From Paramacrobiotus metropolitanus (Eukaryota; Tardigrada; Eutardigrada; Parachela; Macrobiotidae), in NCBI RefSeq assembly GCF_019649055.1, contig NW_026570221.1, positions 868,001 to 932,000 of the forward strand: a stretch of DNA of 64,000 bases, read 5' to 3'. The notes beneath the pieces are model-generated. The model ran no database searches and was not told the DNA's origin. It was given only the letters and a program-made list of their open reading frames with translations. The translations under genes and the position numbers were made by a program. Below are positions 13,073-64,000 of this stretch, piece by piece (positions within the stretch are counted from its first letter, which is position 1; every line of letters starts with the position of its first letter).

Positions 13073-13215
13073 ACGGCGGCAAAATAGCTGATAAGCTGAA
13101 CACCCGCAGTGTGCGGCAAAATAGCCAACAAGCTAACTGGCCGCAGATGCTGCGGCAAAATAGCAAAAGGCTATTTTGCCGCAAAAACTGCGGCAAAATA
13201 GTCACTCCGCAAATA
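13073..13215. repeat. Cluster of the GGCTATTTTGCCGCA hairpin word
   Basis: Several direct and inverted copies of TGCGGCAAAATAGC occur. One pair forms a perfect 14-bp-stem hairpin, with arms at 13151-13164 and 13170-13183 and loop AAAAG. Related clusters lie at 17473-17645 and 37520-37715. Confidence 0.85.
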
Positions 13216-17472: not shown

Positions 17473-17645
17473 GGCTATTTTGCCGCAGTATAACAATAAG
17501 GGTTGGAATAGCCCTCAGGCTATTTTGCCGCACAGTGCGTCGGGATAGCCAGTTGGCTATTTTGCCGCACTATGGTTGGCGAAATAGCTTGTTGGCTATT
17601 TTGCCGCAGCCTGCGTTGGAATAGCTAGTACGCTATTTTGCCGCA
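17473..17645. repeat. Array of five GGCTATTTTGCCGCA copies
   Basis: The word begins at 17473, 17518, 17555, 17594 and (one base changed) near 17631, spaced 36-46 bases. Between them are decayed inverted versions such as GGAATAGCC and GGGATAGCC. The array therefore consists of imperfect hairpins in series. Confidence 0.85.
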
Positions 17646-37519: not shown

Positions 37520-37715
37520 TTTTGCCGCACTACTGAATCAGTAGTGCGGCAAAATAGCCTAACGGCTATTGGGCCGACCGTAGTGCGTTTAAATAGCCTA
37601 ATGGCTAATTAAGCGCAGTGTGCGGCAAAATAGTCTAGTGGCTATTGCGCCTACCATAGTGCGGTAAAATAGCCTACTGGCTATTCTGCCGCAAAGACTG
37701 CGGCAAAATAGCCAC
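37520..37715. repeat. Cluster of the GGCTATTTTGCCGCA word with a 17-bp-arm palindrome
   Basis: At 37520-37554 a 17-base arm (TTTTGCCGCACTACTGA) is followed by one base and its exact reverse complement. Downstream to 37715 at least four more direct or inverted versions (GCGGCAAAATAGCC, GCGGTAAAATAGCC, GGCTATTCTGCCGCA) follow at roughly 40-55-base spacing. Confidence 0.85.
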
Positions 37716-39418: not shown

Positions 39419-39533
39419 TGTCAGAGGCACATGACTCCGCCTGGTGCATACGGCCCACCATGGACGTATTTGCACTCATGCTTGCCATATCGCCTCTCTC
39501 GCTGTACGTACGTGTGCTGCTGCACTGCACTCG

Positions 39534-39551
39534 TATCCGCTGAAGCGGATA
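39534..39551 (+). promoter_or_regulatory. LTR hairpin with CTGAAG apex
   Basis: TATCCGC, loop TGAA, GCGGATA form a perfect 7-bp stem. Flanking TGCACTGC and GCAGTGCA can extend it after a small bulge (39521-39562). Two further hairpins with the same apex occur in the leader. Confidence 0.6.
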
Positions 39552-39810
39552 TACGCAGTGCACACACTGAGCATACTTGCTCTCTCGTCCCTCTTTCGCA
39601 GTATGACTCAGCGTTCATACGCTCGCGTTGGATCGAGTCCAGTCTGCGCATCAACACACAGCTGATGGCGCACAGCACGTGCTTGCCGCCAGTTGCTTCT
39701 TTCACGCCTTGACGGACGCTCAAGAGCCTTTTTCAGCATACACTTGCTTAGCCATCAGTGCTTTGTTTTGCTTTCCTGCTATTACGCAGCATTGCTCCCC
39801 TTTATTTGTC

Positions 39811-39816
39811 AATAAA
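39811..39816 (+). terminator. LTR polyadenylation signal AATAAA
   Basis: A canonical AATAAA stands 36 bases before the LTR end, in the position expected for the R/U5 polyadenylation signal. Confidence 0.6.
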
Positions 39817-39852
39817 GCATCACTCGTTATCTCCTCGTGCTTGTCTGTTACA

Positions 39853-39863
39853 TGGTAGCAGAT
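39853..39863 (+). promoter_or_regulatory. Primer-binding site, initiator Met-tRNA
   Basis: TGGTAGCAGA is complementary to the 3' end of animal initiator Met-tRNA (which ends TCTGCTACCA). Further on, GGTTTTCGATCC (39872-39883) resembles the complement of the T-arm, so the primer may pair in two blocks. The site directly abuts the LTR end. Confidence 0.75.
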
Positions 39864-41152
39864 TCATACGGTTTTCGATCCCACGGAATCTCTGAGGAGA
39901 CGGTGAAGGCTTCACTTGCGGAGAACTCGTCAGGAACCTGAAAGTCACTGTCAGATTGATTACTGAAGTAATCTCTGCCTTGACTTTGATCAGACTGATC
40001 ACATCGTCTTACAGCTGCGGAGAAACGAGGATCACTGAAGTGATTCTCCCCACAGCTGGTGAGCACAGTCTTCTTTGGCTCTTCCACATTGAAGAGCACA
40101 TTCCCAACAGCACGGACTTTTCCCAACTGACGGATCAGACTCGAACGAGAGTCTGCAGCGCGAACGGATTACTCCAATTATACGGGGACCATCGGTTTGA
40201 ACACCGACCCGCAACTCTAACAGCGGATTTCAGCACGGAAACGACGGATTTCCGACCTCGGACGGAGGAAATCGACCGGAACCGACACCGACACCGACAC
40301 TGGTAAAGTCACGGTTATAGGTCGATTTTAGCCGCAACTAGTTCGGCTTTTTACTTTCTAACGGTAGAAAACTATTTCTAGCCGTAAGTTTAAACTTTTC
40401 ATCGGTTAAAAAGTAATTTCTGACGGAGAAACCGACTCGGAATTTTGCTTTTGGTCGAGAACCGACCTGCTAGGTCAACGAACCTGTCTAGACAGTTAGA
40501 CAAAGGCTAACCGGCAACAGGTCGGAAATTCTCTTCATTTTAATTTCTAACGGTGTTTCGACCACCAGAAAATTTTCTTAATTAATAAAACTAATTTCTA
40601 ACGGTTAAAAACTTCAAAATCCGACTAGATAAACTTTCTAGCCGACCTAAAATAATTTGTTTTTCTAACGGGAAATAGCGCGAAAATTCTCGAACTTCCT
40701 TGTGACGTCATAACGACCGCTTATCAGTACTTTAGAGGCAGCCAATCAGAGTGCAGGGGAAAGTTCCCATAGCCTAACATAGGCGTGATTCATCGTTTTT
40801 TGTAAAATTTGCACACGGCTCGCATTCTGTGACGTAGGCAGAAGTGCAAGACCACTTAACCTGTTACGTCACACTGGTCAGCACAGTAATATAGGACGTA
40901 CTATACTGTACTACTATAACGTACTGTACTGTACCATTGTACTGTATACTAATACCCTGTGTACTGAGTCACCAACAGACACATCAACAACAACAACAAC
41001 ATCTCACCGGACGTTCCTGACCCTCGGAAGTTCCTGAACAAAAAGACGATCCTGACTTTACCGAACATCTTCACACAGAAGATTGTTCGACTTTTCCTTT
41101 CTAACCAATAAAATTCGTAAGGCTCCACCAGAGCCGACCTGACTCGACAACA
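39864..41152 (+). promoter_or_regulatory. Structured 5' leader of the giant element
   Basis: About 1.3 kb separate the primer-binding site from the gag start. It holds hairpins with a CTGAAG apex at 39958-39973 (6-bp stem) and 40027-40048 (9-bp stem), and a perfect GTGAAG-G-CTTCAC palindrome at 39903-39915. About seven copies of TTTCTAACGG-like words lie between 40352 and 40670. A (CAA)n run sits at 40985-41000. Donor-like sites are GGTAAAGT near 40302 and CGTAAGG near 41117. No ORF is supported; this is likely where packaging, dimerisation and translation signals reside. Confidence 0.6.
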
Positions 41153-44100
41153 ATGTCGAATCCTCGAGAAAACGAGTACGCGAGAAAGTTCAACAAGGAC
41201 TACTCTCGGCGTGCGAACATGACCGGAAAGTACTCACTTCGGTACGCCGGTCAGGACACGAGTCAGCCGTCCTCAACCGACTCGACTAAGTCGGCCGAAG
41301 CAAAGGAGAGACGCAACGAACGGATCCTCCTTGCTGACTCGAATCCGACCTCGGACGACAGTTTTGAGGACGCCAGGGATAAAACATTCCTGGACACCCA
41401 AGCTGACGTAGCAGCCCCGTCCCACCCGACAGGGGGGGATGTGGAACAGCTGCAGGCAGAGACCACATTGTCTCATGCCGACCAACAGTCGAGCTCACAA
41501 AGAGCTCAAGACTCGGTAACGGTCACAAAGACCACCGAGCTCGGACGGCAATCACCCAACAGAACGGAAGAAGTGCCGAAGCCGACCTCGCCCAACATGG
41601 ACATACCGACTAACCAAGTCGGGAGGAGATCGCCGACCACACAGGCCGAGCGAAAATCTCCGACCAAGGAAGTCGGTGAACAACAACTGACTAGCCAGGC
41701 CGACCAACAGAAGGTCGACCTTCCACCAGCTCAAGAGGTCGAACAGCCGACCTCGACCGGAATGGAAAAGCTGACAACGGATGCCAGCAAAGTCCAACCG
41801 ACCACACAGGTCGGAAGGATTTCGCCGACCTCGAAAATCGGTCAACAGATACCGACCTCAGAGGTCGGAGAAAAGGAAGTCGGCAACAAGCAACCGACTA
41901 GCCTGGAACGGCAACCAACCGATACAAAGTCGGATGCGGCCGTCCAGCCGACTAAATCACCGACCGGAACGGAAGATTCCGAAGTACCGCCACGGAGCGG
42001 CCCTCACCCAGCCGGATCGCCGACCAGCATACCGGCACCCAACGAACGGATTATTTCACCGTTGAGCCGACCTTCGCCAACTGGAAGCGACTCGACTCGA
42101 GCAACCGGAGCTCAACAAACGGTGAAGTCGACCAAGGCGACACAAAGTCGACCTGTCGACCTGAAGACTAGACCGTCACCACCAATGTTCGAACCTAGCG
42201 AACTTGGTAGCACTCCGTCACCGACAAACGAAGTCTTTGACGCAATAACTGAGTCAAGACCGAGCAGTGCGGACGGATTCTTCGCGACGTCACCGAAGTC
42301 CAACAAGGACGACCTCATCCACCAGGCCAGTGCACTCGGAAATACGGCCAAGAAATGGGTAGCGGCAACACCGCCCGAAAGGATCGTAGACGTCGACCTA
42401 CTCCGCGCGAGATGCCGTAGGCTGATCACTCAGATCGCTTTGGCAGACAGAATTGTCGACTCGGCGGGAAAGTCGCTCCGAAACTCGGAGGATACCCATC
42501 GGCTCGAACGGAGCAAATGGGAACGCGACATGGCGGATGCTAACAAAGGCATCGCTCTCCAACAAAAGGAGATTGATCGGCTAACCGCCATATTGAAGCG
42601 AGCCGACCTACCGTGCCGATACGAAGATGACCAAATCGCCATGCTTAACGGTAAGCTGGATCGGTCAACCGCGGCAGTCTTCGAGATCAAACACGAACTC
42701 GACGAGGCGAACAAAGCACTCGAAGAGACAAAGAAAGAACTGGCCGATGTACAAACAGCATTGGTCGAGTCGGAACAGGCAGCAGGAGCGTTCCACCAAC
42801 AACTTAATCAGGCCAACGAGGAAGCCGAGGTCTATCGCAACGAAGTCGATAGATACGTAACCGAACTCAAGAAGGCCGATAACGAGATCGACCGACTGAC
42901 ACAACGAATTGACGAGCTTGAGTCGGAGATGGAACTCCTCTTCACCAGGATGGGACGTCGGTTCATCGACGCGAACGCTCGGGACATGGGTTTTTCTAAC
43001 CAAAGGACAGCCGATGTCGACCTGGTGGAAGCAAACGCTCAGCTAACCGACCAGGTCTATGGACTGAACCAAGTCCTTAAGGAGGAACAGAAACTCCGAG
43101 CTCAACTGGAGTATAACTTGAACGAGGCTCAAAAGGTAAACGAGGCGCAACACAGCCGCATCCTTTACCTGGAGGCCCGTGAGGTCGAACTATACGACTT
43201 TGGCGAACAAGCCGCCCGCAATCTCACAGAGATGATGCGGCAAATGGACGAGATGGACACGGAAACACGGTGTCTAAGGGAGGAGAAGAAACACCTGGAA
43301 CAAAGCCAGGTCGAACTTCCTTCATACCGGGAACAAAGCCGGGTGGAACCCCCCTCATACCGAACGTCCATGGCACAGGATCAACAGCCATCGCGAACAA
43401 TAAGCGATATCCTGTGGGGAGTCGATCCGGCTCAGGAACTGGCGAAGAAGGAGAACAACACCTCCTACTTCGTTGGAGTCCTAACAACCGACCCGAGTGT
43501 GGGAACAATCCCACAACCACCACCCGTACCAAGTGCTCCGGAACCGGAACACAATACGTCGACCGCGGCACCACGGGTACCAACGTCGAATGTGGCGACA
43601 ACGACGTCGGCCGGTGCATACACTAGCACTTCGTACGCAACGCGCACAACAATGTACGCGCCGGTACCTAACGCCAGAGGAGACCGGACAACGGACGCCG
43701 AACGTCTCCCAGCCCAGCTGCCAAGACTTGGCATGGAGGCATACCGTCCACCACGGACGAACTCTAACCCAAACTTCCTCCGTCAGAATCCGCAGTTCGA
43801 CTTTGAACGCGGACGAGCTCGGTCATTCAACGTGGATGACCAGCGCCAGAACGGACAGAACGGAGAAGATAGCTCCGACCAACAAGGCCGAGCGCCTCCG
43901 AACCGACCTACACAAGGTCGGATGCCGGCTCAGGGAACACAGCCCAACCGGTACGGAAGAGTCTACGACCAACCGAGTGGATTCTATCCACAGGCGCCGA
44001 GACAAAATCGAGCGCCCCCTCCACAACAGTATGGGGGACAATCCCAACAGCCTCGTTACGACGACCAGGCTCAGGCGCCGCATCCGCAACAGGACGGATA

Positions 44101-45748
44101 CGACGATCAGTATGAATCAGCTCACCACCAGCAGGTATATGGGGACCAACAAGGTCATATGCCATATGCCAACCTGCCACCTGCCCCGGCCGTACAACAG
44201 GCTGAGCTGCTGGCACAACTGATCCCTCCGGCACAAGATCCGAAACATGTCGCGATAGTACGTTCCATTGCCCACGGACGTCGGCAACCTATGCCGTCGT
44301 TCGATGGCGACCACACCAAACTACAGGGGTGGCTTAAACAAATCCGAAGCCTGCATCGTCAAGCCCAACAATGGTACGAGGACGATCAGACGTTCATGGC
44401 TGACTTGGTGGCCCAACTGGATGGCCAGGCGGAACACTGGCATACCCTCGAAGCCGCCGGAGAACCACTCGGCGGATGGCCAGTCAACGTATGGCTGACC
44501 AAATTCGAGCAGCGATTCGCCGACAAAAACAAAGAAGTGAACATGATATCCCGGATAAACAAACGGATATTTCGCTTTGGCGAAGAAACGCCCGAGCAGT
44601 ATTACGACGCTATGATGTTCATGAAGTCCCAAGTCCCGACAATGACCGACCAGATGATACTATATCATCTTAAGGAGAACATCCATGAACCCAAACTACG
44701 GGAAGCCCTGGAGATTAAGATGCCGTCGACACCAATTGAACTTCGTGACTACTTACGGAGCTTCGTTAACGGCAAAGAAATGTACGAGGTGCGCAAACAA
44801 CGCGACGGCGACTACGCTAGAGTTCGGGCGGCAACACCTACGCCTGTCCCAGCTCCACCTCCGGCGATACCACAACAGAGTGGATATCAGCCACACATGA
44901 TGCCGGGATACCAAACTCCGACGGCACAGTACGGACAACAGAGTCCGGCGCCGACGCCACCGGTGCAACAGGCACCAGTCCAGCAACAGACCTGGGCAGG
45001 CGCAGCAGCAGCAAACCTGAATTCCCCGGCACCTGGAGTAGAAGCCCCCGGTAACAACTACGGTGGCCCAGGTTACAGCTCGGGCGGTAACCAAAACAAC
45101 ACAGGTTTTGGCTACGGACAGAACTTTAACCAAGGATACTCCGCATACGGACAGTATCCTCCACAAGGATACGGCGGCGGAGGCTATGGTCGCGGCAGAG
45201 GACGCGGCGGCGGGAATCGCGGCCGTGGAAACTTTCCTAACCGCGGCGGAGGCGGCGGCCCACAAGGCAACCGACCTCCCCAAGCACAACAAAGTGCTCG
45301 GCAAGCGTCGACGTACGTCGACAAGATGGAGGCAGCCTTCTTCCAGTGGACGAGGGACAAGACCTTCCGATGCAGGCACTGCATGTTTAACAACCATGAC
45401 GAGTCGCGCTGCATATATGGCTCGGATAACAATCCGAACCTTCGGTGGTACGACGATTGGTACCGCCGATATTCGACAAATGGCCCGGTTGGCTCGGCTA
45501 ACCCCTTCTGGAAGGATGTCGTGCCACCGCCGCGCCAACGCCAACAGGCAGGAGGCTCGGGTAGCCCCGGTAACGGAAACCGGTCACCCGGCCAGGGGAA
45601 TGGCGGAAACCGCAACAATAGCGGCGGGAACCAACAAGGTTCCCCGGCATACAGAGAACCGTTGCCGCCCCGCCAGTCGCTGAACTCGACGCCACCCAAC
45701 AATGGGCCGGCTCGGAGTAACTCCCCGGGAAACGCCCAAGGTCGATGA
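41153..45748 (+). CDS. gag: Gag-like protein, 1531 aa, with large N-terminal extension
   Basis: The Gag polyprotein should form the particle and bind genomic RNA. Visible parts: residues 1-400 are disordered and rich in Pro, Thr, Ser, with repeated TSQ/PTTQVGR spacers; about 420-720 is a long coiled coil (VFEIKHELDEANKALEETKK and following heptads); about 1045-1215 is a retrotransposon Gag domain (LQGWLKQI, WLTKFEQRFADKNKE, TPEQYYDAMM); about 1340-1385 is an RGG/glycine-rich RNA-binding segment; a CX2CX4HX4C zinc knuckle stands at 1407-1420 (C codons at 45371, 45380, H at 45395, C at 45410). Ordinary Gypsy Gags are a few hundred residues long, so about 1000 residues are extra. The start has the context ACAACAATGTC. 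The stop TGA overlaps an ATG at 45745 (ATGA). Confidence 0.85.
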   Translation: MSNPRENEYARKFNKDYSRRANMTGKYSLRYAGQDTSQPSSTDSTKSAEAKERRNERILLADSNPTSDDSFEDARDKTFLDTQADVAAPSHPTGGDVEQLQAETTLSHADQQSSSQRAQDSVTVTKTTELGRQSPNRTEEVPKPTSPNMDIPTNQVGRRSPTTQAERKSPTKEVGEQQLTSQADQQKVDLPPAQEVEQPTSTGMEKLTTDASKVQPTTQVGRISPTSKIGQQIPTSEVGEKEVGNKQPTSLERQPTDTKSDAAVQPTKSPTGTEDSEVPPRSGPHPAGSPTSIPAPNERIISPLSRPSPTGSDSTRATGAQQTVKSTKATQSRPVDLKTRPSPPMFEPSELGSTPSPTNEVFDAITESRPSSADGFFATSPKSNKDDLIHQASALGNTAKKWVAATPPERIVDVDLLRARCRRLITQIALADRIVDSAGKSLRNSEDTHRLERSKWERDMADANKGIALQQKEIDRLTAILKRADLPCRYEDDQIAMLNGKLDRSTAAVFEIKHELDEANKALEETKKELADVQTALVESEQAAGAFHQQLNQANEEAEVYRNEVDRYVTELKKADNEIDRLTQRIDELESEMELLFTRMGRRFIDANARDMGFSNQRTADVDLVEANAQLTDQVYGLNQVLKEEQKLRAQLEYNLNEAQKVNEAQHSRILYLEAREVELYDFGEQAARNLTEMMRQMDEMDTETRCLREEKKHLEQSQVELPSYREQSRVEPPSYRTSMAQDQQPSRTISDILWGVDPAQELAKKENNTSYFVGVLTTDPSVGTIPQPPPVPSAPEPEHNTSTAAPRVPTSNVATTTSAGAYTSTSYATRTTMYAPVPNARGDRTTDAERLPAQLPRLGMEAYRPPRTNSNPNFLRQNPQFDFERGRARSFNVDDQRQNGQNGEDSSDQQGRAPPNRPTQGRMPAQGTQPNRYGRVYDQPSGFYPQAPRQNRAPPPQQYGGQSQQPRYDDQAQAPHPQQDGYDDQYESAHHQQVYGDQQGHMPYANLPPAPAVQQAELLAQLIPPAQDPKHVAIVRSIAHGRRQPMPSFDGDHTKLQGWLKQIRSLHRQAQQWYEDDQTFMADLVAQLDGQAEHWHTLEAAGEPLGGWPVNVWLTKFEQRFADKNKEVNMISRINKRIFRFGEETPEQYYDAMMFMKSQVPTMTDQMILYHLKENIHEPKLREALEIKMPSTPIELRDYLRSFVNGKEMYEVRKQRDGDYARVRAATPTPVPAPPPAIPQQSGYQPHMMPGYQTPTAQYGQQSPAPTPPVQQAPVQQQTWAGAAAANLNSPAPGVEAPGNNYGGPGYSSGGNQNNTGFGYGQNFNQGYSAYGQYPPQGYGGGGYGRGRGRGGGNRGRGNFPNRGGGGGPQGNRPPQAQQSARQASTYVDKMEAAFFQWTRDKTFRCRHCMFNNHDESRCIYGSDNNPNLRWYDDWYRRYSTNGPVGSANPFWKDVVPPPRQRQQAGGSGSPGNGNRSPGQGNGGNRNNSGGNQQGSPAYREPLPPRQSLNSTPPNNGPARSNSPGNAQGR

Positions 45749-46403
45749 GCTCCGGTGACTCATTCGACCTCCAACATCCGACCGAACCACCGGACAAGGA
45801 TAATCCCACTAACCAGCCGCTCACTCCCGGAACGAACCGAACTTTGATCCGTTACAAAAACGGATAGCAACGGTCCTAAACACATTAGGACTGGACTGGA
45901 GCAGTTGCACGGAGGAAGAACTCCTCACGGCACTGTCCGCCCCCACAAAGGAGGCGACGGCCGCCCGAAAGATGGCAGCCGAACTCGGAATCTTCATCAA
46001 CAACGGTGAAATCGAGATCCGGACCGGAACACAAGAAATGGCCGGTCAAAACGACCCAGCGCACCGACAAGACGCTGGAACGACAAAAGCCAAGGAAGGC
46101 CAACAACAGATAGACACTATACTTCAGTTACTCGGACTGAACGAAAACAGTTCCGAGGAGGACTTCGCAAAAGCGATGTCGACCTCCACAAAGGAGGTAG
46201 AGACGGCTCGGAAGTTAGCCGCTCAGCTCGATGTGTACGCCAACAACGGCACCGTCGAAGCCCGGCCCGGGATGCAACAAGCACTCGAGGCAACCGACCC
46301 AGTGCCTCGACTTGGCGCTGGAACGTCAGAGGTCGGAACACCAGGAATTGCCCGACCTAAGCAGCGCAAACAATGCGACCGCGCCGTCCGTCACACAAAG
46401 TGA
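45745..46403 (+). CDS. Short ORFs between gag and protease, with a repeated ~50-aa unit
   Basis: An ATG at 45745 overlaps the gag stop and opens a 40-codon frame that ends at 45865-45867. In the -1 frame an ORF open from about 45811 to 46403 carries two related ~50-residue units: LNTLGLDWSSCTEEELLTAL with ATAARKMAAELGIFINNG, and ILQLLGLNENSSEEDFAKAM with VETARKLAAQLDVYANNG. The element-like composition shows these are real coding segments. How ribosomes reach them is unclear: reinitiation at ATGA plus a -1 shift near TACAAAAACGG, or an indel in this copy. I recognise no family for the unit. Confidence 0.55.
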
Positions 46404-48108
46404 CGTGGCACGGCCCGGCCACGGAAGTTGGACCGGATTGCCGGTGAGGATAAACCCAACCGAGCAGCCCAGACGAGGCCCAAGACGTGGAGGACCGGGA
46501 CGCCGATCCACGCACCGGGGCAACAGAAACTTCCCCAATGTATCATCCGCCCGTACAACGGATAGATACGCTGCAACAATGGCAGCCATCGACCTCACCG
46601 AAGAATCGGAAGGAGAAGTCGAAGAATGGGAAACAGTCCCATTGGAAGCACAGGTACCCGTTTACTCTCGGCCGGGAGAAGCGGACCTCTTCCAGCGAAA
46701 AGAGCAACCAGCTAGAACGGTAGCCGGTTCTCGAACATTCCTCAACCTCGACTATATGTGGTCAAAACTGAGGCCAACGGACGCCAAAGTGGAGGAATGT
46801 AAACGAACGCAGGCACAACGGTTCGGAACCGCCGAAATACCGAAGGACGGAGTCATGAACCGACCTGAGGTACAAGAAGTGGTTGAAGCCGGAGTCGAAC
46901 CTACACAAGGTTCAACTCAACAGCTAACCGACCCCGGACCGGTGTCGCTAATCCCCATCAAACCAACGGTGCGGGAAGTAACCTTTGAAAAAGGAACACA
47001 CAAGAAACCGAAGACAGTTCGAGCTTGGACACACGAAATCCAAGTCGGATCCACGCCCACATTGGCGATGTTGGATACCGGAGCGGAGACTTCGCTCATC
47101 GAACAACGGTTTTGCGAGAGGAATGGTTTAACGATACAACCCCTCGGACATTACACCAAAATACTTGGTGTAGGCGGACAAGTCGCCTTCATAGTGTCTC
47201 ATTGCTGCACGGCACCTGTAACAATGCAGGGCTTTACCAGCCATCACACATTTCACGTCCAGCCGACCGAAGCGGACATCCCAGTGCTACTCGGATGCGA
47301 CTACCTGCATTCGAAGTTCACCTTCATTTTGACGCCGATTCCAACCCCGGAACAGCCAGGAGGAACGGTAGTGCAGTCTATCCCGATACCAGAGGCATCG
47401 GACACGGTAGGAAACGAAGTTCGGATTAGTCGGCTTGATCACCCGGCGAACTCCACACGTAACATCTGCCGCGATTGCCGGGATACGAACCGCACTCTGC
47501 TGGAGGAACTAGCACTCCATAACGTGATAGAGCACTATCAGAAACGGATACGCGACGGTACACTACGACAGGCTAGGACCGTACTGAAGCCTATCCCGAT
47601 ACCAGAGGCACCCGCTGACGCGGATGCCCAGAACCGAGAGGAAGTACGACAGAAGTACCGAACTTGGTTCTCGGGAGTTCGACATTTTCTCGACCAACGG
47701 ACGTCGGAAATGGCGATCACTCTGCAACAGAACGGAGCGATAACCCCCGACCAGATACTGGAAGCACAACAAAGGTGCGAACCAGTAATCGCCCTCATAA
47801 ACGACATAGAGGACGAAGCATGGGAATGGGAAGACGAACGAATTCCGATCCATCGACAGTACATGGAATACGGACTTCCCGTCCCACGGCCTTTGGAAAT
47901 GCCATGCCAAGAATTGGGCTCGCAACTATTCGCCTACATGCAGCGAGTACGATCGCACGGAGAATCGTCGACGACTGCATTTTGGCAACGGTACGGCGAG
48001 GACACCGCTATAACGCGACAAATCCCCGCACCGCTACCACCACTTATGCCGCACACTCCAACCCACGTGACGTTTGTGAGTAGCCGGCGAGATCCCAGGA
48101 AAATGTAA
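46231..48108 (+). CDS. pro: Retropepsin-containing ORF (PR), 625 aa
   Basis: The aspartic protease should cleave the Gag and Pol polyproteins. The catalytic motif is MLDTGAETSLIEQRF at about residue 280, followed by ILGVGGQV and the C-terminal hallmark IPVLLGCDYL. The protease occupies roughly residues 265-375; retropepsins act as dimers. The N-terminal 250 residues are disordered, with an arginine/glycine-rich segment (RRGPRRGGPGRRSTHRG). The C-terminal part has two copies of PIPIPEA and a helical region of unknown role. The ORF overlaps the preceding frame (46231-46403) and its end overlaps the open pol frame (48084-48108), so a -1 shift or an equivalent event is needed to enter pol. The ATG at 46231 may not be the true start. 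Confidence 0.8.
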   Translation: MCTPTTAPSKPGPGCNKHSRQPTQCLDLALERQRSEHQELPDLSSANNATAPSVTQSDVARPGHGSWTGLPVRINPTEQPRRGPRRGGPGRRSTHRGNRNFPNVSSARTTDRYAATMAAIDLTEESEGEVEEWETVPLEAQVPVYSRPGEADLFQRKEQPARTVAGSRTFLNLDYMWSKLRPTDAKVEECKRTQAQRFGTAEIPKDGVMNRPEVQEVVEAGVEPTQGSTQQLTDPGPVSLIPIKPTVREVTFEKGTHKKPKTVRAWTHEIQVGSTPTLAMLDTGAETSLIEQRFCERNGLTIQPLGHYTKILGVGGQVAFIVSHCCTAPVTMQGFTSHHTFHVQPTEADIPVLLGCDYLHSKFTFILTPIPTPEQPGGTVVQSIPIPEASDTVGNEVRISRLDHPANSTRNICRDCRDTNRTLLEELALHNVIEHYQKRIRDGTLRQARTVLKPIPIPEAPADADAQNREEVRQKYRTWFSGVRHFLDQRTSEMAITLQQNGAITPDQILEAQQRCEPVIALINDIEDEAWEWEDERIPIHRQYMEYGLPVPRPLEMPCQELGSQLFAYMQRVRSHGESSTTAFWQRYGEDTAITRQIPAPLPPLMPHTPTHVTFVSSRRDPRKM

Positions 48109-53555: not shown

Positions 53556-53731
53556 GGCCATAGGCGTAAAACTTAGAATAAGTTTTAGGTAGCTTAACGG
53601 TAGCTAGGTATAGATGGACCTTTGGTGTCGAAATGGAACCTCTTCAGTTGACCGGAACATCTTCAGTTGAATGTACGGGAGTTGGTAGAATTCGAACGCG
53701 CCGTATTTCCTTTCCTTGACAGCAAGCAACA
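53556..53731 (+). promoter_or_regulatory. Intercistronic spacer with splice-acceptor-like site before ORF4
   Basis: The spacer ends TTTCCTTTCCTTGACAG, then ten bases to the ORF4 ATG. A polypyrimidine tract and CAG at this place look like a 3' splice site for a subgenomic mRNA. A short duplication (CATCTTCAGTTGA type) lies at 53640-53675. The ATG context, CAACAATGTC, is identical to that of gag. Confidence 0.5.
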
Positions 53732-56700: not shown

Positions 56701-59700
56701 CCAGAAGTTCCAAATCTTGCTGGACCAGTACAAAGAGACGTCCGACCGCCGAATGGAACTCGACAAATTGATTCAAGTCGAGCAACAGATGATCCAGTTA
56801 ACCGCGACACCACGGTCGCCGAGGACCATGCAGGCCTTAGCGACACCAGCAGTGGACGGCGAGAAAACATTCGCCGACGCGAAAGCCGCCCTAGAAGAGG
56901 CGAAGAAAATTCTGGAGAAAATACGCGAACGGTCACGACAAGGACTTGAACGGTTCGCCCTCCAGAAGATAAACGATTTCACAACTCACATAGAGTTGGT
57001 GGAAACCTTAGTCCAGTCCGGACTGCCACAAACGTTGGCACATCAACGGCTAGTACAGCCAGGAGTCGAGTTATTGGCAAAGCTCAACGAAGAGCATCGA
57101 GCCATTTTAACCTCATCGACGACGACCACACAGGCCGTAACGTCGAAACCTCCATCACCCGACAGGACGGTCCGTTACGCCGAACTCGCCATAAAGGAAG
57201 CGGAAACCACTCTAAGGCGGATTCAGCAACGTGCCGAGAAAGGACTCGAGCCGAACGCGCAAAGGATAGCTTCCGAGTTCGACACTCACATACAACTTGT
57301 GAGGAACCTGATACAACCAGGCAAGGTCGAACCAGGAGTACAGTTCCGACTCGCAATGAACAGTATAGGTCAGCTGCGGGAATATGAACGAAGCCAACGC
57401 CGGCCAGCGTCACGGAGTCAACATCGACCAGAGGATTCTGACACGGAAGCTTCGGAGGCACTACCGTCGACCTCATCAGCGGCGGAGATGCACTCGGCGA
57501 TGCGGAAAAACCGCAGAGAAAAGATGTCCTCCATAATCAGTGATGGATGGGACTTACTGGAAGACCTCCAGCGAACTTTTGTGCAGAACACACCAACCGA
57601 CGAAGAAACGTTGCGAGTGGCACGGCAGAAGATGAACGATCTGACGGCCTACCTGAAAAAGGCAGATGATCTCATCCGCAAAGACGAACCGACCGATGTC
57701 GACGAACGACAACTCAGGTCGGTAGTTGAACGGATCACAGAGATCCTCAACAAGGAACCCGAATATACTCGGATTGCCACACCGTCGCCACCTCGCCGAG
57801 CACCACCGACTACAACGGCGGTGATGACTCTAGTCGGCACAACGCCTATGGATAACCTACCGGGCAACTTGGACATAATTACCCAAGCCGGACAGGATCT
57901 AGCCGACATCTACTTCCACCGACTTAGTGGAACTCTAACGGAACAAGAGGAAGCCGACTTGTCCCGAGTTGATCGAGCTCTACGACTCGAACTCGATTGG
58001 GCCGATACCCTAGGCTCATGGGGAACTCCTCCACCAGGCCCGAACCGAGACCGACTAATTGAAGCTTTGCAGTCGGTAATTGACCATGTTAAACAGTATT
58101 TGGCAAACCCGGACAAAGCGGGAGCGCCAGTACCGGCTCGGGAGATAGCACCTTCTCCAGTCCCATCAGTTGGACTCGACGTCGAACTCCCATACGTCGA
58201 CAACGCGGTCGACCAGAAGGAAGTCGACATCGGCGAAGTCGAGAATCAGTACCGAGAAGCGGTCGACGTTATGGAGAAGCTCGGAAAACAACTCCGAGAA
58301 CTTGACCCGAACAACGCCATGGAGAGACAAATGCGCGATGCCTTGGATCAGCAGTACAGTATCTGCTCCAGGCGGGTCGAGGATTTGTGGAAAATCTTAG
58401 AAGCTAACCCACAAAGGGTTCAGCCGACCCCTCCGCAACAACCGCCTCAGCCCACATTGGCTGAGCAACGCGAAGCTCTTAACGAAAAGTTGGCTCGCAC
58501 ACGGAGGATTGCCGAGAGCTTGCAACGTCAAGTCGATTACATGGACGGAACAGATCCGACCATCCGTAACATTCGGACGGCAATTGAAGATCAAATCCGA
58601 GTCTCCCAAATGCACATTCAAGACGTGCAAGTCGACCTCGAAATCTTACGGCAGAAGGAACTCGAAGAATTCCGGAAAGAACAACGTGCATCCGGGTCAC
58701 AACAGCTGACCACTTCGAGCCAGCCGACTTCGACAACAGCTCGGAAACAACCTCAGCCGACCTCAACAGTAGGACCGGCTCAACCGAAACCAATGGAAAT
58801 GCCCGACCGGCCCATGTCTCCGGCGACAGAAGCTCGGATCATGGAAGCCATACCGGATACCGGCGAATTGGCAAGTACGGTTGCACCTCATATCGTTAAA
58901 TTACTGGAGAGGGTAGCCGAACTCATCACAGAGATGAGGGCCCGCAGAAACTTCTGCGTCGATAACAGCCAAGAAGCGAATGACTTGGATCGAGATATCC
59001 TAGCTTGGGGAAACAACGCCCGGTTCATACGACGACTTTGTCACCCGGACGCCCCACAAACGACTAGGGCTCGACAACACCTTATTCGAACTATCTCGTG
59101 GCTGGATACAAGGGTGAACGAGTACGAGGAAGAGAAGGAACGGGACAAGGAGCAGGAATCGACCAACCTGGCAACACATGCCATGGCCGAAGGTCGGCCG
59201 TCTCGGATCACAAAGATCCAGTCGGCTCGGAAACCGAATTTTGACTCTGTCCGACTTCCACCTCCAGCCCCACCAGCCAAACCCGACCTTGAATGGATAA
59301 AGGCAGTTAACACACAGTTGCTGCGGGCGGACGCCGTCATCACTGAACTTCGTAAGATGATGGACGAAACCGACCAACAGAGTCCACAATACTGTCAGAT
59401 CGACATTAACCTCGGACACTTGGAGAACAATACCAAGGAAGCCCGATTTATTCTCCGACCAACAACAGTGTGGTCGGCAAAGAATCAGGAGCGGCTGCAA
59501 ACCTTGACGGCCATGATTCAATCTTTCGTAGATGACTTCTACAAGCGGAAGGAAGCGGAAGAGCAACGTAAGCTCAAGAGGCCGCCCTCCGCCAAGAAGC
59601 CTAAGGTACAACCGGTCAAGCCGACACAGAAAGTCTCACCGGTCGGTCACCAAGACGACCCGATGGGCGATGTACCGGTACCAGGGCTTGAAGGAGAAGA

Positions 59701-60988
59701 CGAACTTATGGATACGTCGGAGGAAGTCGGAACGACGGAAGTTAACCGACCTCCAACCGAACCCAAGCCCCTCGAACGACCTACCACTTTGCCTGGGCTC
59801 TCACAAAGAGAACCCCAGAGCGAACGAATCGAGGAGCACGGACCACGCAGGCGCCTCTTCCCGACGAAGTCGCCATCACCGGTCAGAACCAAGGAACGAC
59901 TCTTGGAAATCTTAAAGGCGACCCCTTCCAACCTACCACCGGCTGAAGAGAAGCCGAGTCCGACACGGAAAGTAATGGGAGCGAAAGCCCTGTTCACTCC
60001 GGCCGTACATAAGAAGTTAGTCGGCCAAGCTAAAACATTGGACCTTCAACGGATCCTTTACGAAGCACAACTTCAAGGAGGAATCCGAGACCGAACTATG
60101 ACCGATGAGCAACAGACTCAGATGGCACGGAAAATCCATGCTACGGTCCAGGATAGAGATAAAGTCCTAAGACGGTTGGTGACTTTAAGATGCGGAAAGC
60201 AGGAGTTACGACAACTCCCGCTGGATTCGACAATGATCCAGACAATTCAACGGCTCCGCAATCCTAGCATCAACCCGGGCGCCTATACACTGGAAATTCA
60301 ACCTCGGCCCGGAGAAGAGGTGACCGAGAAGATTCCGATAACAATGTCGGACAGTAGCGAAGAAGAGGAGAATGCGGACAACAACGACTCCGATGACTCC
60401 ACTAAGCAAAAGGCAGCGGGATCAGCGAAGCGATCTACACCGAAACGCGGTAGATCGCCGGTAAAACAGATTTCACCGACCCGATCGGCATCCCAGCCGA
60501 CCAAGCTGCCGAGCCAACCAGCAATTGAGAAACCACTCAGGTTCTCACCTCGGAATACCCCTACAAAACCGAAGAAAACCCAAGAGGAGATGGACACAAC
60601 ATCCCCTTCAGAAGCGCGAGTCGAAACTACGGTCGTAACGTCACCACAAAGGGACGAACCGACCTCCATCCACTCCGGCCCCCGTCTAACAATTGACGAA
60701 TCTCGGACAAACGAGTCGGCAAATGAGTCGGTTAACATACCGACCAAACGGAGTACGGTGAAGGAGAAACCACCTCAGGACTCGTCGCGCGAATTCCATG
60801 ACGACCTGGCCTTACAACACGTGAAGGACTTGACCAGGTCGGAACAGGATGCCTGCATCGACATGGCATACCCAGAGGATAGGGAACTCTGGCACTCGTT
60901 GAGAATCCGACGTGCCAGTATAGTTGAAACACCACGGAAGCTCGGCGTGACCACGACCGACTTACCGAGAAGATGGCCGACGTTATGA
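53732..60988 (+). CDS. ORF4, 2418-aa modular helical protein of unknown family
   Basis: I do not recognise this protein. No signal peptide, transmembrane segment or envelope-like cysteine pattern is visible, so it is not an obvious env. Residues 1-290 are disordered (Pro/Thr/Ser). Then two kinds of helical module alternate. Type A (~60 aa, helix-Pro-helix) is at about 302-363, 420-482, 500-565, 955-1023, 1502-1558 and 1577-1643. Type B (~75-85 aa, three helices) is at about 620-706, 718-798, 827-905, 1047-1123, 1147-1222, 1266-1340, 1379-1460, 1720-1800 and 1857-1942; compare THIELVETLVQSGLP with THIQLVRNLIQPG. Pro-rich linkers separate them. The C-terminal 450 residues are charged and disordered with a short conserved-looking end (DDLALQHVKDLTRSEQDACI). 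The layout suggests a scaffold or filament (inference). It lies 177 bases after pol and overlaps ORF5 by 16 bases. Confidence 0.8.
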   Translation: MSGRHRHDPPSSGSNSGRSGSGSNRSQPYPTSYTTHRSTSRSDNSRSATQTPLPQVNNPQANATANVLAGLTVGPQRGTIPPQILPPNTAVDNTGCLWNLGTGASQTTPTTAADPHGQMPPYQWSAPTSSASTMMTGAAAYPTPTMVPGTANTPVTVYMVPTMAPGMTNMTSPIYTTPTLAPNSFAYSGPPVRFVTVPPTSGLPPPQIATMSMVNPDGTISPPRPVLLTPPTSPTHLRPPGQQNLWMDPNATTHLMNRLNQHRNQVGGQSQQVPASTTATQAATSMPPPYVVVQQINTNGRTEAELRQQAITARAHIDTISQALTHTSQMDPNHTPFRRNLLAELAYHENRLNEANNMLHAKEQNHLRICQQAVARHVAQRLGDPDPGPPSLVDIPTSQPTPSTSTGQQVPGRAPSLEIGKLRVRKEDAMKEAVKLRMKYSKIPHTAENYTAEMGRIDRDETRWTDTAADMERKIRAQEQNLRSSGISAPTTQAVIDEEIRLARLDALAQKRNEYLREIQQVKERLPTLNPTDKYHQQTVKGNFDLIADWTKKLMEKEDEIRALQPTTTQPAVVSTSQPQQMITVNVGQGLLPLQIPVFQTNPTPQVPQGPPVLPLPTLQELRDFLRTAGIVVERMGAVLEDTPRTEESMNIDNDRRAITDYMAKLQSYLTAGMPANIEQLDAIRTRMRNAQNRMNRYPQLLQNLDAAERRSSDVPMPTLADVRSAIQTGDRILDGLRMTQGGDVVAITNRARTVNDLYRSLRVARQLAEQHGGITTDDQAIRLDMHYRRIQQIIQSYTGGAEQRVPQLRYHAMALQIGQDDQTTEVWKTILDGKQVLQGIYGRIADGIRDPTDLDPVRKVNDLIAHIGLTEDLTRYGLPTTEVDKHRLRTAMDQVKTAVLAEKLPTQQTDNAQPTTLPSGAVVTSPISSPPPPTTQVDSGAQPPNSQVFDPARLRTLESLKRRRDDAINQSNAIMERMQNLPTSGADHPQKFQILLDQYKETSDRRMELDKLIQVEQQMIQLTATPRSPRTMQALATPAVDGEKTFADAKAALEEAKKILEKIRERSRQGLERFALQKINDFTTHIELVETLVQSGLPQTLAHQRLVQPGVELLAKLNEEHRAILTSSTTTTQAVTSKPPSPDRTVRYAELAIKEAETTLRRIQQRAEKGLEPNAQRIASEFDTHIQLVRNLIQPGKVEPGVQFRLAMNSIGQLREYERSQRRPASRSQHRPEDSDTEASEALPSTSSAAEMHSAMRKNRREKMSSIISDGWDLLEDLQRTFVQNTPTDEETLRVARQKMNDLTAYLKKADDLIRKDEPTDVDERQLRSVVERITEILNKEPEYTRIATPSPPRRAPPTTTAVMTLVGTTPMDNLPGNLDIITQAGQDLADIYFHRLSGTLTEQEEADLSRVDRALRLELDWADTLGSWGTPPPGPNRDRLIEALQSVIDHVKQYLANPDKAGAPVPAREIAPSPVPSVGLDVELPYVDNAVDQKEVDIGEVENQYREAVDVMEKLGKQLRELDPNNAMERQMRDALDQQYSICSRRVEDLWKILEANPQRVQPTPPQQPPQPTLAEQREALNEKLARTRRIAESLQRQVDYMDGTDPTIRNIRTAIEDQIRVSQMHIQDVQVDLEILRQKELEEFRKEQRASGSQQLTTSSQPTSTTARKQPQPTSTVGPAQPKPMEMPDRPMSPATEARIMEAIPDTGELASTVAPHIVKLLERVAELITEMRARRNFCVDNSQEANDLDRDILAWGNNARFIRRLCHPDAPQTTRARQHLIRTISWLDTRVNEYEEEKERDKEQESTNLATHAMAEGRPSRITKIQSARKPNFDSVRLPPPAPPAKPDLEWIKAVNTQLLRADAVITELRKMMDETDQQSPQYCQIDINLGHLENNTKEARFILRPTTVWSAKNQERLQTLTAMIQSFVDDFYKRKEAEEQRKLKRPPSAKKPKVQPVKPTQKVSPVGHQDDPMGDVPVPGLEGEDELMDTSEEVGTTEVNRPPTEPKPLERPTTLPGLSQREPQSERIEEHGPRRRLFPTKSPSPVRTKERLLEILKATPSNLPPAEEKPSPTRKVMGAKALFTPAVHKKLVGQAKTLDLQRILYEAQLQGGIRDRTMTDEQQTQMARKIHATVQDRDKVLRRLVTLRCGKQELRQLPLDSTMIQTIQRLRNPSINPGAYTLEIQPRPGEEVTEKIPITMSDSSEEEENADNNDSDDSTKQKAAGSAKRSTPKRGRSPVKQISPTRSASQPTKLPSQPAIEKPLRFSPRNTPTKPKKTQEEMDTTSPSEARVETTVVTSPQRDEPTSIHSGPRLTIDESRTNESANESVNIPTKRSTVKEKPPQDSSREFHDDLALQHVKDLTRSEQDACIDMAYPEDRELWHSLRIRRASIVETPRKLGVTTTDLPRRWPTL

Positions 60989-63888
60989 AACGAATGGGAG
61001 AACATTACCGAGCGGAACGAAGTCGACCTAAAGCCCTACAAGTGGCTACGCCGACTCAACATAAAGTCACCGCTCCGGAACCCAAGTCGACCAAGAAGAC
61101 AGTACAACAACCCGTCAAGATGAAAGTTCCCCCTCCGATCAGACAACCCTCCGTCCAAATCGACGATGATTTCGATGCTCGGGTCATCAACTCGGCTAAC
61201 TCCGCGAAATCCCACAAGGATAAACGGAAAGCCAAGAAGGAAGCAGCGAAACAGTCTGCCAAGCCGCAACCGATGGAAACTCAGAAGAAACCGGTCAAGT
61301 CGGAAGCCAAGGAACCGGCCAAACCGAAGTCGGATTCCACGGTAAAAACGCCGAAGCCCAACCCGGCCAAACGACATAAGTCGTCCGACGACCTGGACAT
61401 CTCGGATGCCGGCCCACAAAGGACCGAGCAGAAAGAGAAGACTCAACAACCGCCCGACAAAGAAGCGGTGGAGCGTAAATTCAAAGAAGTCATGGAGCGA
61501 ACCGGCACAAAGCCGGCTAAGACTTCAGGAGGTCGGCTACGGAAACCGCCGACTCCGACCGAAAAACCTCAGCCCTCCACATCTAAGCAACAGTCTGATG
61601 TGGAATCCGACCATATCTCGGACATCGAGGAAAAGGACTCAATCTCCGACCATGGAGAAGGGGATCCATACGAAGGATTCAAGGGCGACCTGAAAGAAAT
61701 GTTCGACCATGGAGCGGACACTGACGAATCGCAGTGGCCAGCCCCGGACGACGTACGAGAACGCCTTCCGGACGAACAGCCGGACGATCCGGTCGAAACT
61801 TTAATCCGTACCGTAAGAGTACACGTGGAAGTTGTCCGTAGTATCCGAAATGCCAAGGAAAACGGCACGGATATCTATCAGTCCTTAGTCCGAGACCTGT
61901 CCAACAATATCCAGGCAGGAGGTGAAACCGGAACATGGTTGACGCATCAACTCATGATGCAGATCGTCGCCTGGACTCTGGATTTCGGATTGGCAGTAGC
62001 CGTTCACCGACAATGGGGACGGATGGCCGAACTGCTTCCACCGGACCTCATCAAATCACTTAAAAGTGCAGCTGCAAGGAATGCGGACGATACACCGACC
62101 AGAATCGCGCGGTGCATTGGATATATTCGGAACCCTCGTGGATCGACTCTGGTCCAAATTGCCCGTGTATACAACGTGATGTACATGGATAAGAAGGGGA
62201 ACATCGATGAAATTATCAAGTATAGGATAGGCGAACGAATCGCGCTTCTGGTCGAGCAACATACTCTCCAGACGACTAACGCAGAACGCGACGTGCCAGT
62301 TCGGTATACCGTGCCAAACTTCATACCGGAACAACATCGGCGTGAATTCAACCTCCGGATGTCTTACGTCAACACGGACAAGCCTCCGGCGGGCACGGAA
62401 CCGACTGAAGAATACGGCGAATCCAACGAACAACCGTCGGATGATGCAGCCACTTTGCTGCATATAGCTCGTACGGCTGCACAATCGTCACAAAAACGGG
62501 TCCAAGCCTTAACCCGACCTCGAGCACCGCACGAACCGACAACATATGTCGGTACGGCAGCAGCTCCAGCGGGACGAGCAAGTACTGCGAAACCAACCCG
62601 GAGTGCGAAAGGACGGTTCATACCAAAGGATGTACAGTCACTCCCGCCGCCCTCGCCTATGGAAGTTTCGCCGGAACCGGAAGACTTGACCCAACAGAAG
62701 GGAAAGTCGAAGTCGACCAGGACGAAGTCGACCAAGCCGGCCAAGAAGAAAGAACCGAAGTCATCCGAGCTTATCTCGTCGTCTGAAGAAGAAACCGACA
62801 ACGACGATGACGACGACGAAGATTTCCAAACACCTGGGAATGGATCACCAAAGGACGATGACGATGACGACGATGGGAATGGTAAACCTCCACCTCCGTC
62901 AAACTCGGCACCTCAACAGCAGGGCGAGCCGGAAATACCGGACAAACAACCTAAAGAAAAGGATAGCGGTGACAAAGCCGACGATCCTAAAGGCAACGGG
63001 GATGAGGGTGGAGTATACATCCCTCGGAAGTATGGCCAACGGATATCACTGACGCCTGACTCCGACCACCAGCCACTCCGCCTTGACTTCCATGAAGACA
63101 TGATAGAAGTCTTGCCGGACGACATACCTCCACTGGCTAATGTGAGGCTTAAGTATACCGGCATTAAATCAGCCTCAAAACCGAAGCCGAGCGTCTCGGA
63201 ATACGACGCAGGATGGATGTACACGTTCGCTGCTCTAAGGGCTCTTGCGACAAAGGGACCGAAGTTCGCCACGCCGAAGATCGCCTTTAAACTCCTCCAA
63301 CATTGGAAGGTAGACGAAACGGGCGACTGGAGACAGCTAAGTCAGAACAACGTACGCCATTACTGTGACCTGGGATACCACGCAGGGAAAATAATACGTA
63401 CATACACCAGCGGAAAGCGGATGTACTACGAGTTCCCACCGGCTAAAAGAGACCCGGCACCTTCAACATATGAAGGATGGATACACGCCATTGAAGCGTG
63501 CATGGGAATGTCTTGGCATCCGGAAGGATTAACCCGCGGAGAAATTCTCCACCAACTCATAGCACGGTTTGAGTTTGAATGGAAGACGGCGGAACCGCAA
63601 CTAGTCGACCCTAAGTATAAGGCTAAACCAGACCCGACCGCCGGACGGAAGAAATACTCCCTGGAAGACGACCTAGAGTTCGTCCTGGAAAAAGGGCTTG
63701 CCCAACAACGGTTTGCCACAAATACCGATAAAATCCAGGGTGGTCAACGGTTCATCGCCTTAAATCCGTCAACTCACCGTTATGGACATTTACCGAAGGA
63801 ACGATCGACCTCGGCACAAGCGACCGAGCTGGCTGACTCGCACCAAGCAGGTCGGCCAGAGTCGACGGAAGCACCTACTCGGGAATGA
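60973..63888 (+). CDS. ORF5, 971-aa protein with two C-terminal winged-helix-like units, unknown family
   Basis: I recognise no named family. Residues 1-270 are basic and disordered with repeated KPVKSEAKEPAKPK-type runs. About 270-465 is a globular helical region (LIRTVRVHVEVVRSI, WLTHQLMMQIVAWTLDFGLA, IARCIGYIRNP). About 500-700 is acidic/basic linker. At 743-826 a unit reads YTFAALRALATKG, FKLLQHWKV, WRQLSQNNVRHYCDLGYHAG and GKRMYYEFPP; its order of helices, the WxxxxxxNxVRH recognition-helix pattern and the following wing resemble forkhead-type winged helices (inference, not a database result). A second, longer unit (832-932) starts YEGWIHAIEACM and ends GGQRFIALNP. A DNA- or RNA-binding role is plausible. 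The ATG lies inside the end of ORF4 (AGATGGCC), 16 bases before its stop, so translation may be coupled. Confidence 0.75.
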   Translation: MADVMKRMGEHYRAERSRPKALQVATPTQHKVTAPEPKSTKKTVQQPVKMKVPPPIRQPSVQIDDDFDARVINSANSAKSHKDKRKAKKEAAKQSAKPQPMETQKKPVKSEAKEPAKPKSDSTVKTPKPNPAKRHKSSDDLDISDAGPQRTEQKEKTQQPPDKEAVERKFKEVMERTGTKPAKTSGGRLRKPPTPTEKPQPSTSKQQSDVESDHISDIEEKDSISDHGEGDPYEGFKGDLKEMFDHGADTDESQWPAPDDVRERLPDEQPDDPVETLIRTVRVHVEVVRSIRNAKENGTDIYQSLVRDLSNNIQAGGETGTWLTHQLMMQIVAWTLDFGLAVAVHRQWGRMAELLPPDLIKSLKSAAARNADDTPTRIARCIGYIRNPRGSTLVQIARVYNVMYMDKKGNIDEIIKYRIGERIALLVEQHTLQTTNAERDVPVRYTVPNFIPEQHRREFNLRMSYVNTDKPPAGTEPTEEYGESNEQPSDDAATLLHIARTAAQSSQKRVQALTRPRAPHEPTTYVGTAAAPAGRASTAKPTRSAKGRFIPKDVQSLPPPSPMEVSPEPEDLTQQKGKSKSTRTKSTKPAKKKEPKSSELISSSEEETDNDDDDDEDFQTPGNGSPKDDDDDDDGNGKPPPPSNSAPQQQGEPEIPDKQPKEKDSGDKADDPKGNGDEGGVYIPRKYGQRISLTPDSDHQPLRLDFHEDMIEVLPDDIPPLANVRLKYTGIKSASKPKPSVSEYDAGWMYTFAALRALATKGPKFATPKIAFKLLQHWKVDETGDWRQLSQNNVRHYCDLGYHAGKIIRTYTSGKRMYYEFPPAKRDPAPSTYEGWIHAIEACMGMSWHPEGLTRGEILHQLIARFEFEWKTAEPQLVDPKYKAKPDPTAGRKKYSLEDDLEFVLEKGLAQQRFATNTDKIQGGQRFIALNPSTHRYGHLPKERSTSAQATELADSHQAGRPESTEAPTRE

Positions 63889-64000
63889 GGAAACGCAGAA
63901 AGCGTTAGAGGAGTGGCATAACCGACCTTCCTCCATTGACACCACACAGGCGTCACCGACCAACAGAAGTCGACCTACCTCATAGACGACCACAAAGGCG
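63889..64000 (+). other. Sequence after ORF5, still inside the element
   Basis: A frame open from 63782 continues past the ORF5 stop to 63985 with element-like composition (EEWHNRPS, TTQASPTNRSRPT), so another frame change or a further ORF may begin here. The window ends before this can be judged. Confidence 0.35.

What the first reader, a model, noticed from the sequence alone, without database searches (positions are those of the whole stretch)
39419..64000. Giant Gypsy-class retrotransposon with more accessory than core coding capacity
Seen: one orientation, one composition, intact gag, protease and pol, followed by 2418- and 971-aa ORFs, and no 3' LTR within 24.5 kb. Known: most animal Ty3/Gypsy elements are 5-10 kb; planarian Burro elements and plant Ogre elements are giant exceptions. 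Inference: this is a giant lineage with its own structural proteins, possibly assembling an unusual particle.
Basis: partly seen in the sequence, partly recalled or inferred. Interest (0 to 1): 0.92.

Follow-up and report, generated by a model that had tools for sequence, protein, structure and literature searches.

The report
Giant spliced tardigrade LTR retrotransposon
A tardigrade genome carries many copies of a roughly 30-kilobase virus-like jumping gene with more extra protein-coding sequence than copying machinery, part of it apparently made by RNA splicing, as in complex retroviruses.

Summary
The element runs from the 5' LTR (39419) to a 435-base 3' LTR ending 6,092 bases past the window: 30,674 bp, inside 29.8 kb. 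Four other copies of 28.8-30.4 kb have exact 4-bp target duplications, so the size belongs to the family and is not a misjoin. This copy is not intact: PR and pol, and ORF4 and ORF5, are each one frame in sister copies examined; its two LTRs differ at 13 positions and it lacks a target duplication. A further conserved gene, ORF6, lies beyond the window. Accessory ORFs show dN/dS of about 0.08-0.30. A 10.2-kb intron joins a 55-residue ORF4 leader to ORF6: two genomic copies lack exactly this intron at nucleotide level, as reverse-transcribed spliced RNA would. A second acceptor-like site lies 9 nt before the ORF4 start codon. No membrane segment was found in any ORF. ORF5 and ORF6 found no relatives outside this species; ORF4 was not searched that way. 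It is a giant Ty3/Gypsy-type lineage with retrovirus-like splicing and orphan accessory proteins. The 'unusual particle' remains untested.

The parts
39419..39852 (+). 5' LTR, 434 nt, TG...CA, with AATAAA at LTR position 393; the partner 3' LTR lies outside the window at 69658-70092
39853..39863 (+). likely primer-binding site: 11 nt complementary to the 3' end (with CCA) of two host tRNA-Met(CAT) genes; 7 of 10 copies compared have an extra base that interrupts the pairing
40062..40063 (+). candidate leader 5' splice site CAGCTG|GTGAGC; the CTGGTGAGC motif is also in the leader pieces of C205, C186 and C37 (splice inferred)
41153..45748 (+). ORF1, gag-like, 1531 aa: coiled-coil-like stretch, one CCHC knuckle at residue 1407
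45721..45745 (+). 25-nt overlap of gag with the -1 frame, holding GGGAAAC at 45727 in slippery phase (candidate -1 frameshift; this -1 frame is interrupted downstream in this copy; C205 has no strict slippery heptamer here)
46231..48108 (+). ORF2, aspartic protease, 625 aa (one frame with pol in C37)
48417..53555 (+). ORF3, RT-RNase H-integrase, 1712 aa
53704..53722 (+). 3' splice-site-like TATTTCCTTTCCTTGACAG, 9 nt before the ORF4 ATG; found with little change in 8 of 11 pieces compared, window included (the script located no ORF4 start in C6, C163 and C27)
53732..60988 (+). ORF4, 2418 aa, diverged repeats; in sister copies continuous with ORF5
53732..53896 (+). 55-codon leader exon of ORF4, shared with ORF6 by splicing
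53897..64000 (+). intron 2: donor CCGCAG|GTAAAC at 53897; acceptor ends at 64104, outside the window (10,208 nt); joins to ORF6 (outside the window, to 66285)
60973..63888 (+). ORF5, 971 aa, the C-terminal part of the fused ORF4-5 in sister copies

Best explanation
This is one damaged and probably recombinant copy of a multicopy, recently mobile Ty3/Gypsy-type LTR retrotransposon of P. metropolitanus, about 29-30.5 kb long with LTRs of about 435 nt. Inferred expression: one LTR-driven transcript, probably primed for reverse transcription by tRNA-Met, encodes gag and, through a -1 frameshift, PR-pol. A singly spliced RNA (leader to the acceptor at 53722) encodes a giant ORF4-5 protein of about 3.1-3.4 thousand aa. 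A second splice (53897 to 64104) joins the 55-aa ORF4 leader to ORF6 and gives a protein of about 781 aa. The accessory proteins show no membrane segment, so they are most likely internal factors (scaffold, assembly or trafficking) rather than an envelope. Shown: LTRs, target duplications, copy number, selection, and exact absence of intron 2 in two genomic copies. Inferred: intron 1, the frameshift, the primer and the protein functions.
For: Eleven LTR pairs examined, 8 with exact 4-bp duplications; C3, C98, C41 and C10 are 28.8-30.4 kb long. ORF5: 48 genomic matches, 31 covering residues 1-971, 22 of those 31 without an in-frame stop (my count). dN/dS against sister copies: ORF4 0.17-0.30 over the five copies holding most of it, ORF5 0.08-0.16, ORF6 0.10-0.19 (0.06 on a 191-codon fragment in C37), pol 0.08-0.10. 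C163 and C176 lack intron 2 exactly at CAG|GT...AG; C152 is intronless at protein level; the NCBI model P0128 has the same junction. The window's PBS pairs with 11 nt of host tRNA-Met.
Against: No RNA was examined, and whether P0128 rests on RNA is not known to me. The donor of intron 1 and the frameshift rest on motifs only, and C205 lacks a strict slippery heptamer. Seven of 10 copies have an extra base in the tRNA-pairing stretch. No fold or homology gives the accessory proteins a function. The window copy lacks a target duplication. C41 has ORF4 and ORF6 matches inside its LTRs but no ORF5 row there among the 47 scored. C176 was seen at nucleotide level over 70 bases only.
Confidence: 0.82

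Rival explanations
1. The 30-kb structure is an assembly misjoin or several elements side by side.
For: The window copy has no target duplication and its two LTRs differ at 13 positions plus 7 gap columns.
Against: Four other copies of 28.8-30.4 kb have exact target duplications; in C3, C98 and C41 the LTR pairs differ at 0, 1 and 1 positions.
Confidence: 0.05
2. ORF4-6 are captured host genes or passengers carried by an ordinary Gypsy element.
For: No viral homology; some copies lack most of them (C133, C37).
Against: They are kept across copies of different subfamilies (ORF5 60-72% and ORF6 63-69% identical in C6 and C58) under purifying selection, share splice sites with the element, and the protein search found ORF5 and ORF6 relatives only in this species.
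Confidence: 0.1
3. It is an endogenous retrovirus whose ORF4-6 include an envelope.
For: Retrovirus-like layout and splicing, with genes downstream of pol.
Against: No segment above Kyte-Doolittle 1.6 over 19 residues in any ORF; the maximum in ORF4-6 is 1.49. No env family hit.
Confidence: 0.07
4. The intronless copies arose by DNA deletion, not by splicing.
For: Other copies have internal deletions that do not fit the named splice sites (C133, C37).
Against: In C163 and C176 the joins fall exactly on CAG|GT and AG| boundaries, and the NCBI model uses the same join.
Confidence: 0.03

Closest known systems
Burro (planarian giant Gypsy elements; PMC6431247, passages read)
   Same: Gypsy-type, over 30 kb in total, multicopy, large excess coding capacity in an animal
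   Different: Burro: internal region up to 25 kb, a 4,873-aa ORF1 polyprotein with MATH, BIR, BCL2, ankyrin and Env-like regions. Here: internal region 28.1-29.8 kb in C41, C98, C3 and the window copy, LTRs of about 435 nt, gag, pol and accessory ORFs separate, none of those domains found in the five window ORFs, splicing. No direct sequence comparison was possible.
Ogre (plant; same passages)
   Same: Giant Gypsy element with extra ORFs
   Different: Ogre size owes much to LTRs of 1.9-6.5 kb; here the LTRs are 0.43 kb.
Env-bearing gypsy/errantiviruses (recalled)
   Same: Gene downstream of pol thought to be expressed from a spliced RNA
   Different: No membrane protein found here; about 4,100 aa of orphan accessory sequence; two acceptors; a shared leader exon.
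Complex retroviruses (recalled)
   Same: Frameshift plus alternative splicing of one long transcript is the working model here
   Different: pol is nearest to Gypsy-type elements in the search; no envelope found; far longer element.

Membership tests
Ty3/Gypsy (Metaviridae) LTR retrotransposons | Domain order PR-RT-RNase H-IN | tested here: met
Ty3/Gypsy (Metaviridae) LTR retrotransposons | TG...CA LTRs with a short target duplication | tested here: met
   8 of 11 pairs with exact 4 bp; not met by the window copy itself, C38 or C69
Ty3/Gypsy (Metaviridae) LTR retrotransposons | tRNA primer-binding site next to the 5' LTR | tested here: inconclusive
   window: 11 nt pair with host tRNA-Met; 7 of 10 copies have an extra base that interrupts it
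Ty3/Gypsy (Metaviridae) LTR retrotransposons | gag with a CCHC knuckle | tested here: met
   no curated gag family reached its cut-off
Ty3/Gypsy (Metaviridae) LTR retrotransposons | Polymerase groups with named Metaviridae clades | tested here: inconclusive
   54-row RT-RNase H tree: a P. metropolitanus-only clade on a long stem; no reference clades available
Burro | Single giant polyprotein with MATH/BIR/BCL2/ankyrin/Env-like regions | tested here: not met
   separate ORFs; no such Pfam hits in the five window ORFs or in ORF6
Burro | Sequence kinship to Burro polymerase | not testable with these tools
   no planarian name among the 120 listed hits (1,781 hits in all)
Ogre | LTRs of several kb | tested here: not met
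   433-438 nt in the ten copies
Env-bearing errantivirus-like elements | Transmembrane envelope protein | tested here: not met
   hydropathy only

The most novel reading that the evidence does not exclude
A new Metaviridae lineage has independently evolved complex-retrovirus-like expression (frameshift, at least two splice acceptors, a shared leader exon) to make non-envelope accessory proteins, including one of over 3,000 aa, that form or modify an unusual intracellular particle able to package a 30-kb RNA.
Probability: 0.3. Interest if true: 0.87.

Novelty: new variant of a known kind. Interest (0 to 1): 0.72.

Why it matters
By internal length (29.6 kb in C3) it exceeds the 25 kb that the 2019 review gives for Burro (passages), in a different phylum and with short LTRs, and it seems recently mobile (LTR pairs with 0-1 mismatches in C3, C98, C41, C186, C37 and C133). 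The same review notes that retrotransposon length limits were traditionally put near 10 kb; this family is a test of that limit. Some 30 copies with full-length ORF5 matches offer material for learning what orphan accessory proteins do. Spliced genomic copies give DNA evidence of splicing in an element of this size.

Tried and rejected
Rejected: (1) C205 and C186 (22 kb) as reverse-transcribed gag-to-ORF4 spliced RNA. C205 continues past gag into the PR region, so its loss of about 8 kb lies further on; its junction was not located, and for C186 I saw only the leader and gag. (2) A forkhead-like fold at the ORF5 C-terminus, suggested by eye: no Pfam or PDB support. (3) A mosaic confined to the window copy: pol is more alike than ORF4-6 also between C13 and C10. 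(4) An initiator-tRNA pattern for its 5' half: none, one hit in a stretch with no tRNA; the 3' half gave six matches, three of which were checked and are tRNA-Met. (5) ORF4 repeats: seeds were chosen by eye, so only extra hits count; type B one extra window hit at 2.2e-5 against a best shuffle of 0.10; type A extra hits at 1.4e-8 and 1.7e-6 in C58 and 0.0017 in the window, best shuffle 0.024. Self-BLAST of ORF4 printed no repeat. Not done: structure predictions (never accepted); the 5' LTR of C13 was not found in the fetched piece; the C94 LTR pair (about 36.5 kb apart) was not examined. An ungapped comparison of the C10 LTRs (55 differences in 411) is not usable, probably because of an indel offset, so no LTR divergence is given for C10.
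Full report
WHAT IS THERE. The window is C1:868001-932000 of a 169.8-Mb assembly. The contig length 4,484,719 equals that of the contig holding two proteins named Paramacrobiotus metropolitanus, so the host is that tardigrade. The 3' LTR lies past the window: 435 nt, ending at window-coordinate 70092, 95% identical to the 5' LTR over 437 columns. The element is 30,674 bp and its inside 29,805 bp.

IS IT A REAL ELEMENT? LTR pairs were examined in 11 copies. Ten are: the window, three copies found through pol (C3, C37, C133), and six taken from the 40 scored LTR matches as same-contig, same-strand pairs about 21.6-30.1 kb apart; a C94 pair about 36.5 kb apart was left out. Exact 4-bp target duplications are present in 8 of 11: C98, C41, C205, C186, C3, C37, C133, C10. 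Seven of ten by chance would have a probability near 2e-15. Four of the eight are 28.8-30.4 kb long (C10, C41, C98, C3); C37 (20.0 kb), C133 (16.0 kb), C205 and C186 (about 22 kb) are shorter. C3, C98 and C10 have ORF4, ORF5 and ORF6 matches; C41 has ORF4 and ORF6 matches but no ORF5 row there among those scored. The three without a duplication (window, C38, C69) are full length and have 13, 8 and 9 LTR mismatches, against 0-5 in the seven pairs with duplications that were compared. In the window copy the LTR differences crowd into the first 85 or so bases; the 5' LTR is 99% identical to the two C98 LTRs and 95% to the window's own 3' LTR. Recombination between copies is the simplest reading, but an assembly chimera of this one copy is not excluded.

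COPY NUMBER. Matches in the genome: pol 29 (27 of 3,051 candidates scored), ORF5 48 (47 of 1,173 scored), ORF4 43 rows (20 of 1,087 scored), leader-plus-ORF6 59 (58 of 790 scored), LTR 40 (40 of 419 scored). All are lower bounds. For ORF5, 31 of 48 rows cover residues 1-971 and 22 of those 31 have no in-frame stop (my count).

THIS COPY IS DAMAGED. In C37 one frame is open across the PR and pol region held; in the window copy PR and pol are in different frames. At the ORF4-ORF5 junction the two are one open frame in C13, C10, C3, C58 and C6 (5 of 5) and only the window copy differs. Genome-wide rows give the same open-frame length for ORF4 and ORF5 in three copies: 3,227 aa (C3, second copy), 3,302 aa (C69) and 3,066 aa (C478), so these hold both. 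Other copies carry damage of their own: ORF4 of C13, C10 and C3 changes frame, C13 has its own PR-pol frame change and C133 has two stops in the PR-pol frame.

SELECTION. Against sister copies, Nei-Gojobori dN/dS is 0.17-0.30 for ORF4 in the five copies that hold most of it (0.14 and 0.23 on fragments in C133 and C37), 0.08-0.16 for ORF5, 0.10-0.19 for ORF6 (0.06 on a 191-codon fragment), 0.08-0.10 for pol and 0.19-0.25 for the C-terminal part of the PR ORF. Synonymous divergence is 0.24-0.27 in pol but 0.52-0.72 in ORF4-6 for C13 and C10, and nucleotide identity shows the same regional contrast between C13 and C10. Recombination homogenising pol, or constraint on its synonymous sites, could explain it; I cannot separate them.

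EXPRESSION. (a) The 11 nt after the 5' LTR pair with the 3' end, with CCA, of two host tRNA-Met(CAT) genes. Against this, 7 of 10 copies have an extra base there. (b) gag overlaps the -1 frame by 25 nt both here and in C205; the window has GGGAAAC there in slippery phase, C205 has no strict heptamer. (c) A pyrimidine tract and AG end at 53722, 9 nt before the ORF4 ATG, and recur in 8 of 11 pieces compared, window included; the script located no ORF4 start in C6, C163 and C27. The element has 16% T against 27.6% in the flank; 11 of 1,985 AG sites have as many T upstream as this acceptor, and 3 of 1,985 as many as the acceptor at 64104, each counting itself. (d) The NCBI model P0128 begins with the ORF4 leader and continues into ORF6. 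The donor CAG|GTA is present in the window and in C13, C10, C3, C58, C6, C37, C133 and C64; C163 has the leader joined to ORF6; C27 has no leader match. The C163 join falls exactly on the C6 donor and acceptor, the flanking exons being 91% and 88% identical; C163 has pol upstream and an LTR downstream. C176 shows the same exact join in the 70 bases seen. C176 and C152 are the only rows (2 of 59) that span residues 1-780. These copies are what reverse transcription of spliced RNA would leave. (e) Poly(A) hexamers in the window's ORFs are 1 against 5.6 +/- 1.9 under synonymous shuffling (one copy only, z about -2.4), while the LTR holds AATAAA.

PROTEINS. ORF1 has a coiled-coil-like stretch and one CCHC knuckle. 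ORF4 carries diverged repeats of two kinds. ORF4-6 have no Pfam hit above a curated cut-off, no useful PDB relative by profile for ORF5 and ORF6 (best E 0.61 and 2), and no membrane segment by hydropathy. In a database of 5.8 billion proteins, ORF5 found two proteins and ORF6 one, all P. metropolitanus (only 8,000 candidates each were scored, so distant relatives may be missed). ORF4 was not searched there.

RELATIONSHIP. The RT-RNase H tree (54 rows) puts the window copy with the C37 copy and three other P. metropolitanus proteins on a long stem (support 100/100); its deeper place is open, and six other RT rows of the same genome fall elsewhere. The review in PMC6431247 (passages) gives Burro an internal region up to 25 kb. 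Here C3 has 29,551 bp inside and the family differs in ORF layout and domains. PMC11071193 (passages) lists Gypsy among tardigrade repeats; the words giant and Paramacrobiotus do not occur in its main text. Searches for giant Gypsy or LTR elements, for tardigrade or Paramacrobiotus retroelements and for splicing in Gypsy elements showed no listing that names this element; apart from the two papers above I saw listings only, and subscription journals are mostly not held.

HOW IT PROBABLY WORKS. One long transcript makes gag and, by frameshift, the enzymes; splicing makes ORF4-5 and ORF6. As these lack membrane segments and are repeat-rich or orphan, I favour internal scaffold, assembly or trafficking roles (about 0.35) over regulation (about 0.3); neither is shown.

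Noticed in passing
window 23935-24564 (-) and 30787-31356 (-): Ulp1/C48 protease-like ORF and a MULE/ZSWIM transposase-like ORF about 6 kb apart on one strand: possibly a Mutator-like element with a captured protease.
   Followed up: no
window 2531-2986 (+) and 9351-10190 (-): Two ORFs with F-box domains.
   Followed up: no
window 13076-13201, 17518-17645, 37541-37713: Dispersed tandem arrays of a related unit of about 37-39 bp; units include GCGGCAAAATAGCC or a near complement.
   Followed up: no
L031 (C27) positions 1321-4128: Downstream of pol this copy shows many short overlapping matches to the C163 3' region, suggesting a repeat array before the LTR.
   Followed up: no
window 39853-64000: Strong depletion of T on the coding strand (16% against 27.6% in the flank), also at third codon positions.
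   Followed up: partly
P0006 and P0007 (NCBI protein models): Public gene models annotate pieces of this element as host genes, one as 'titin homolog'.
   Followed up: partly
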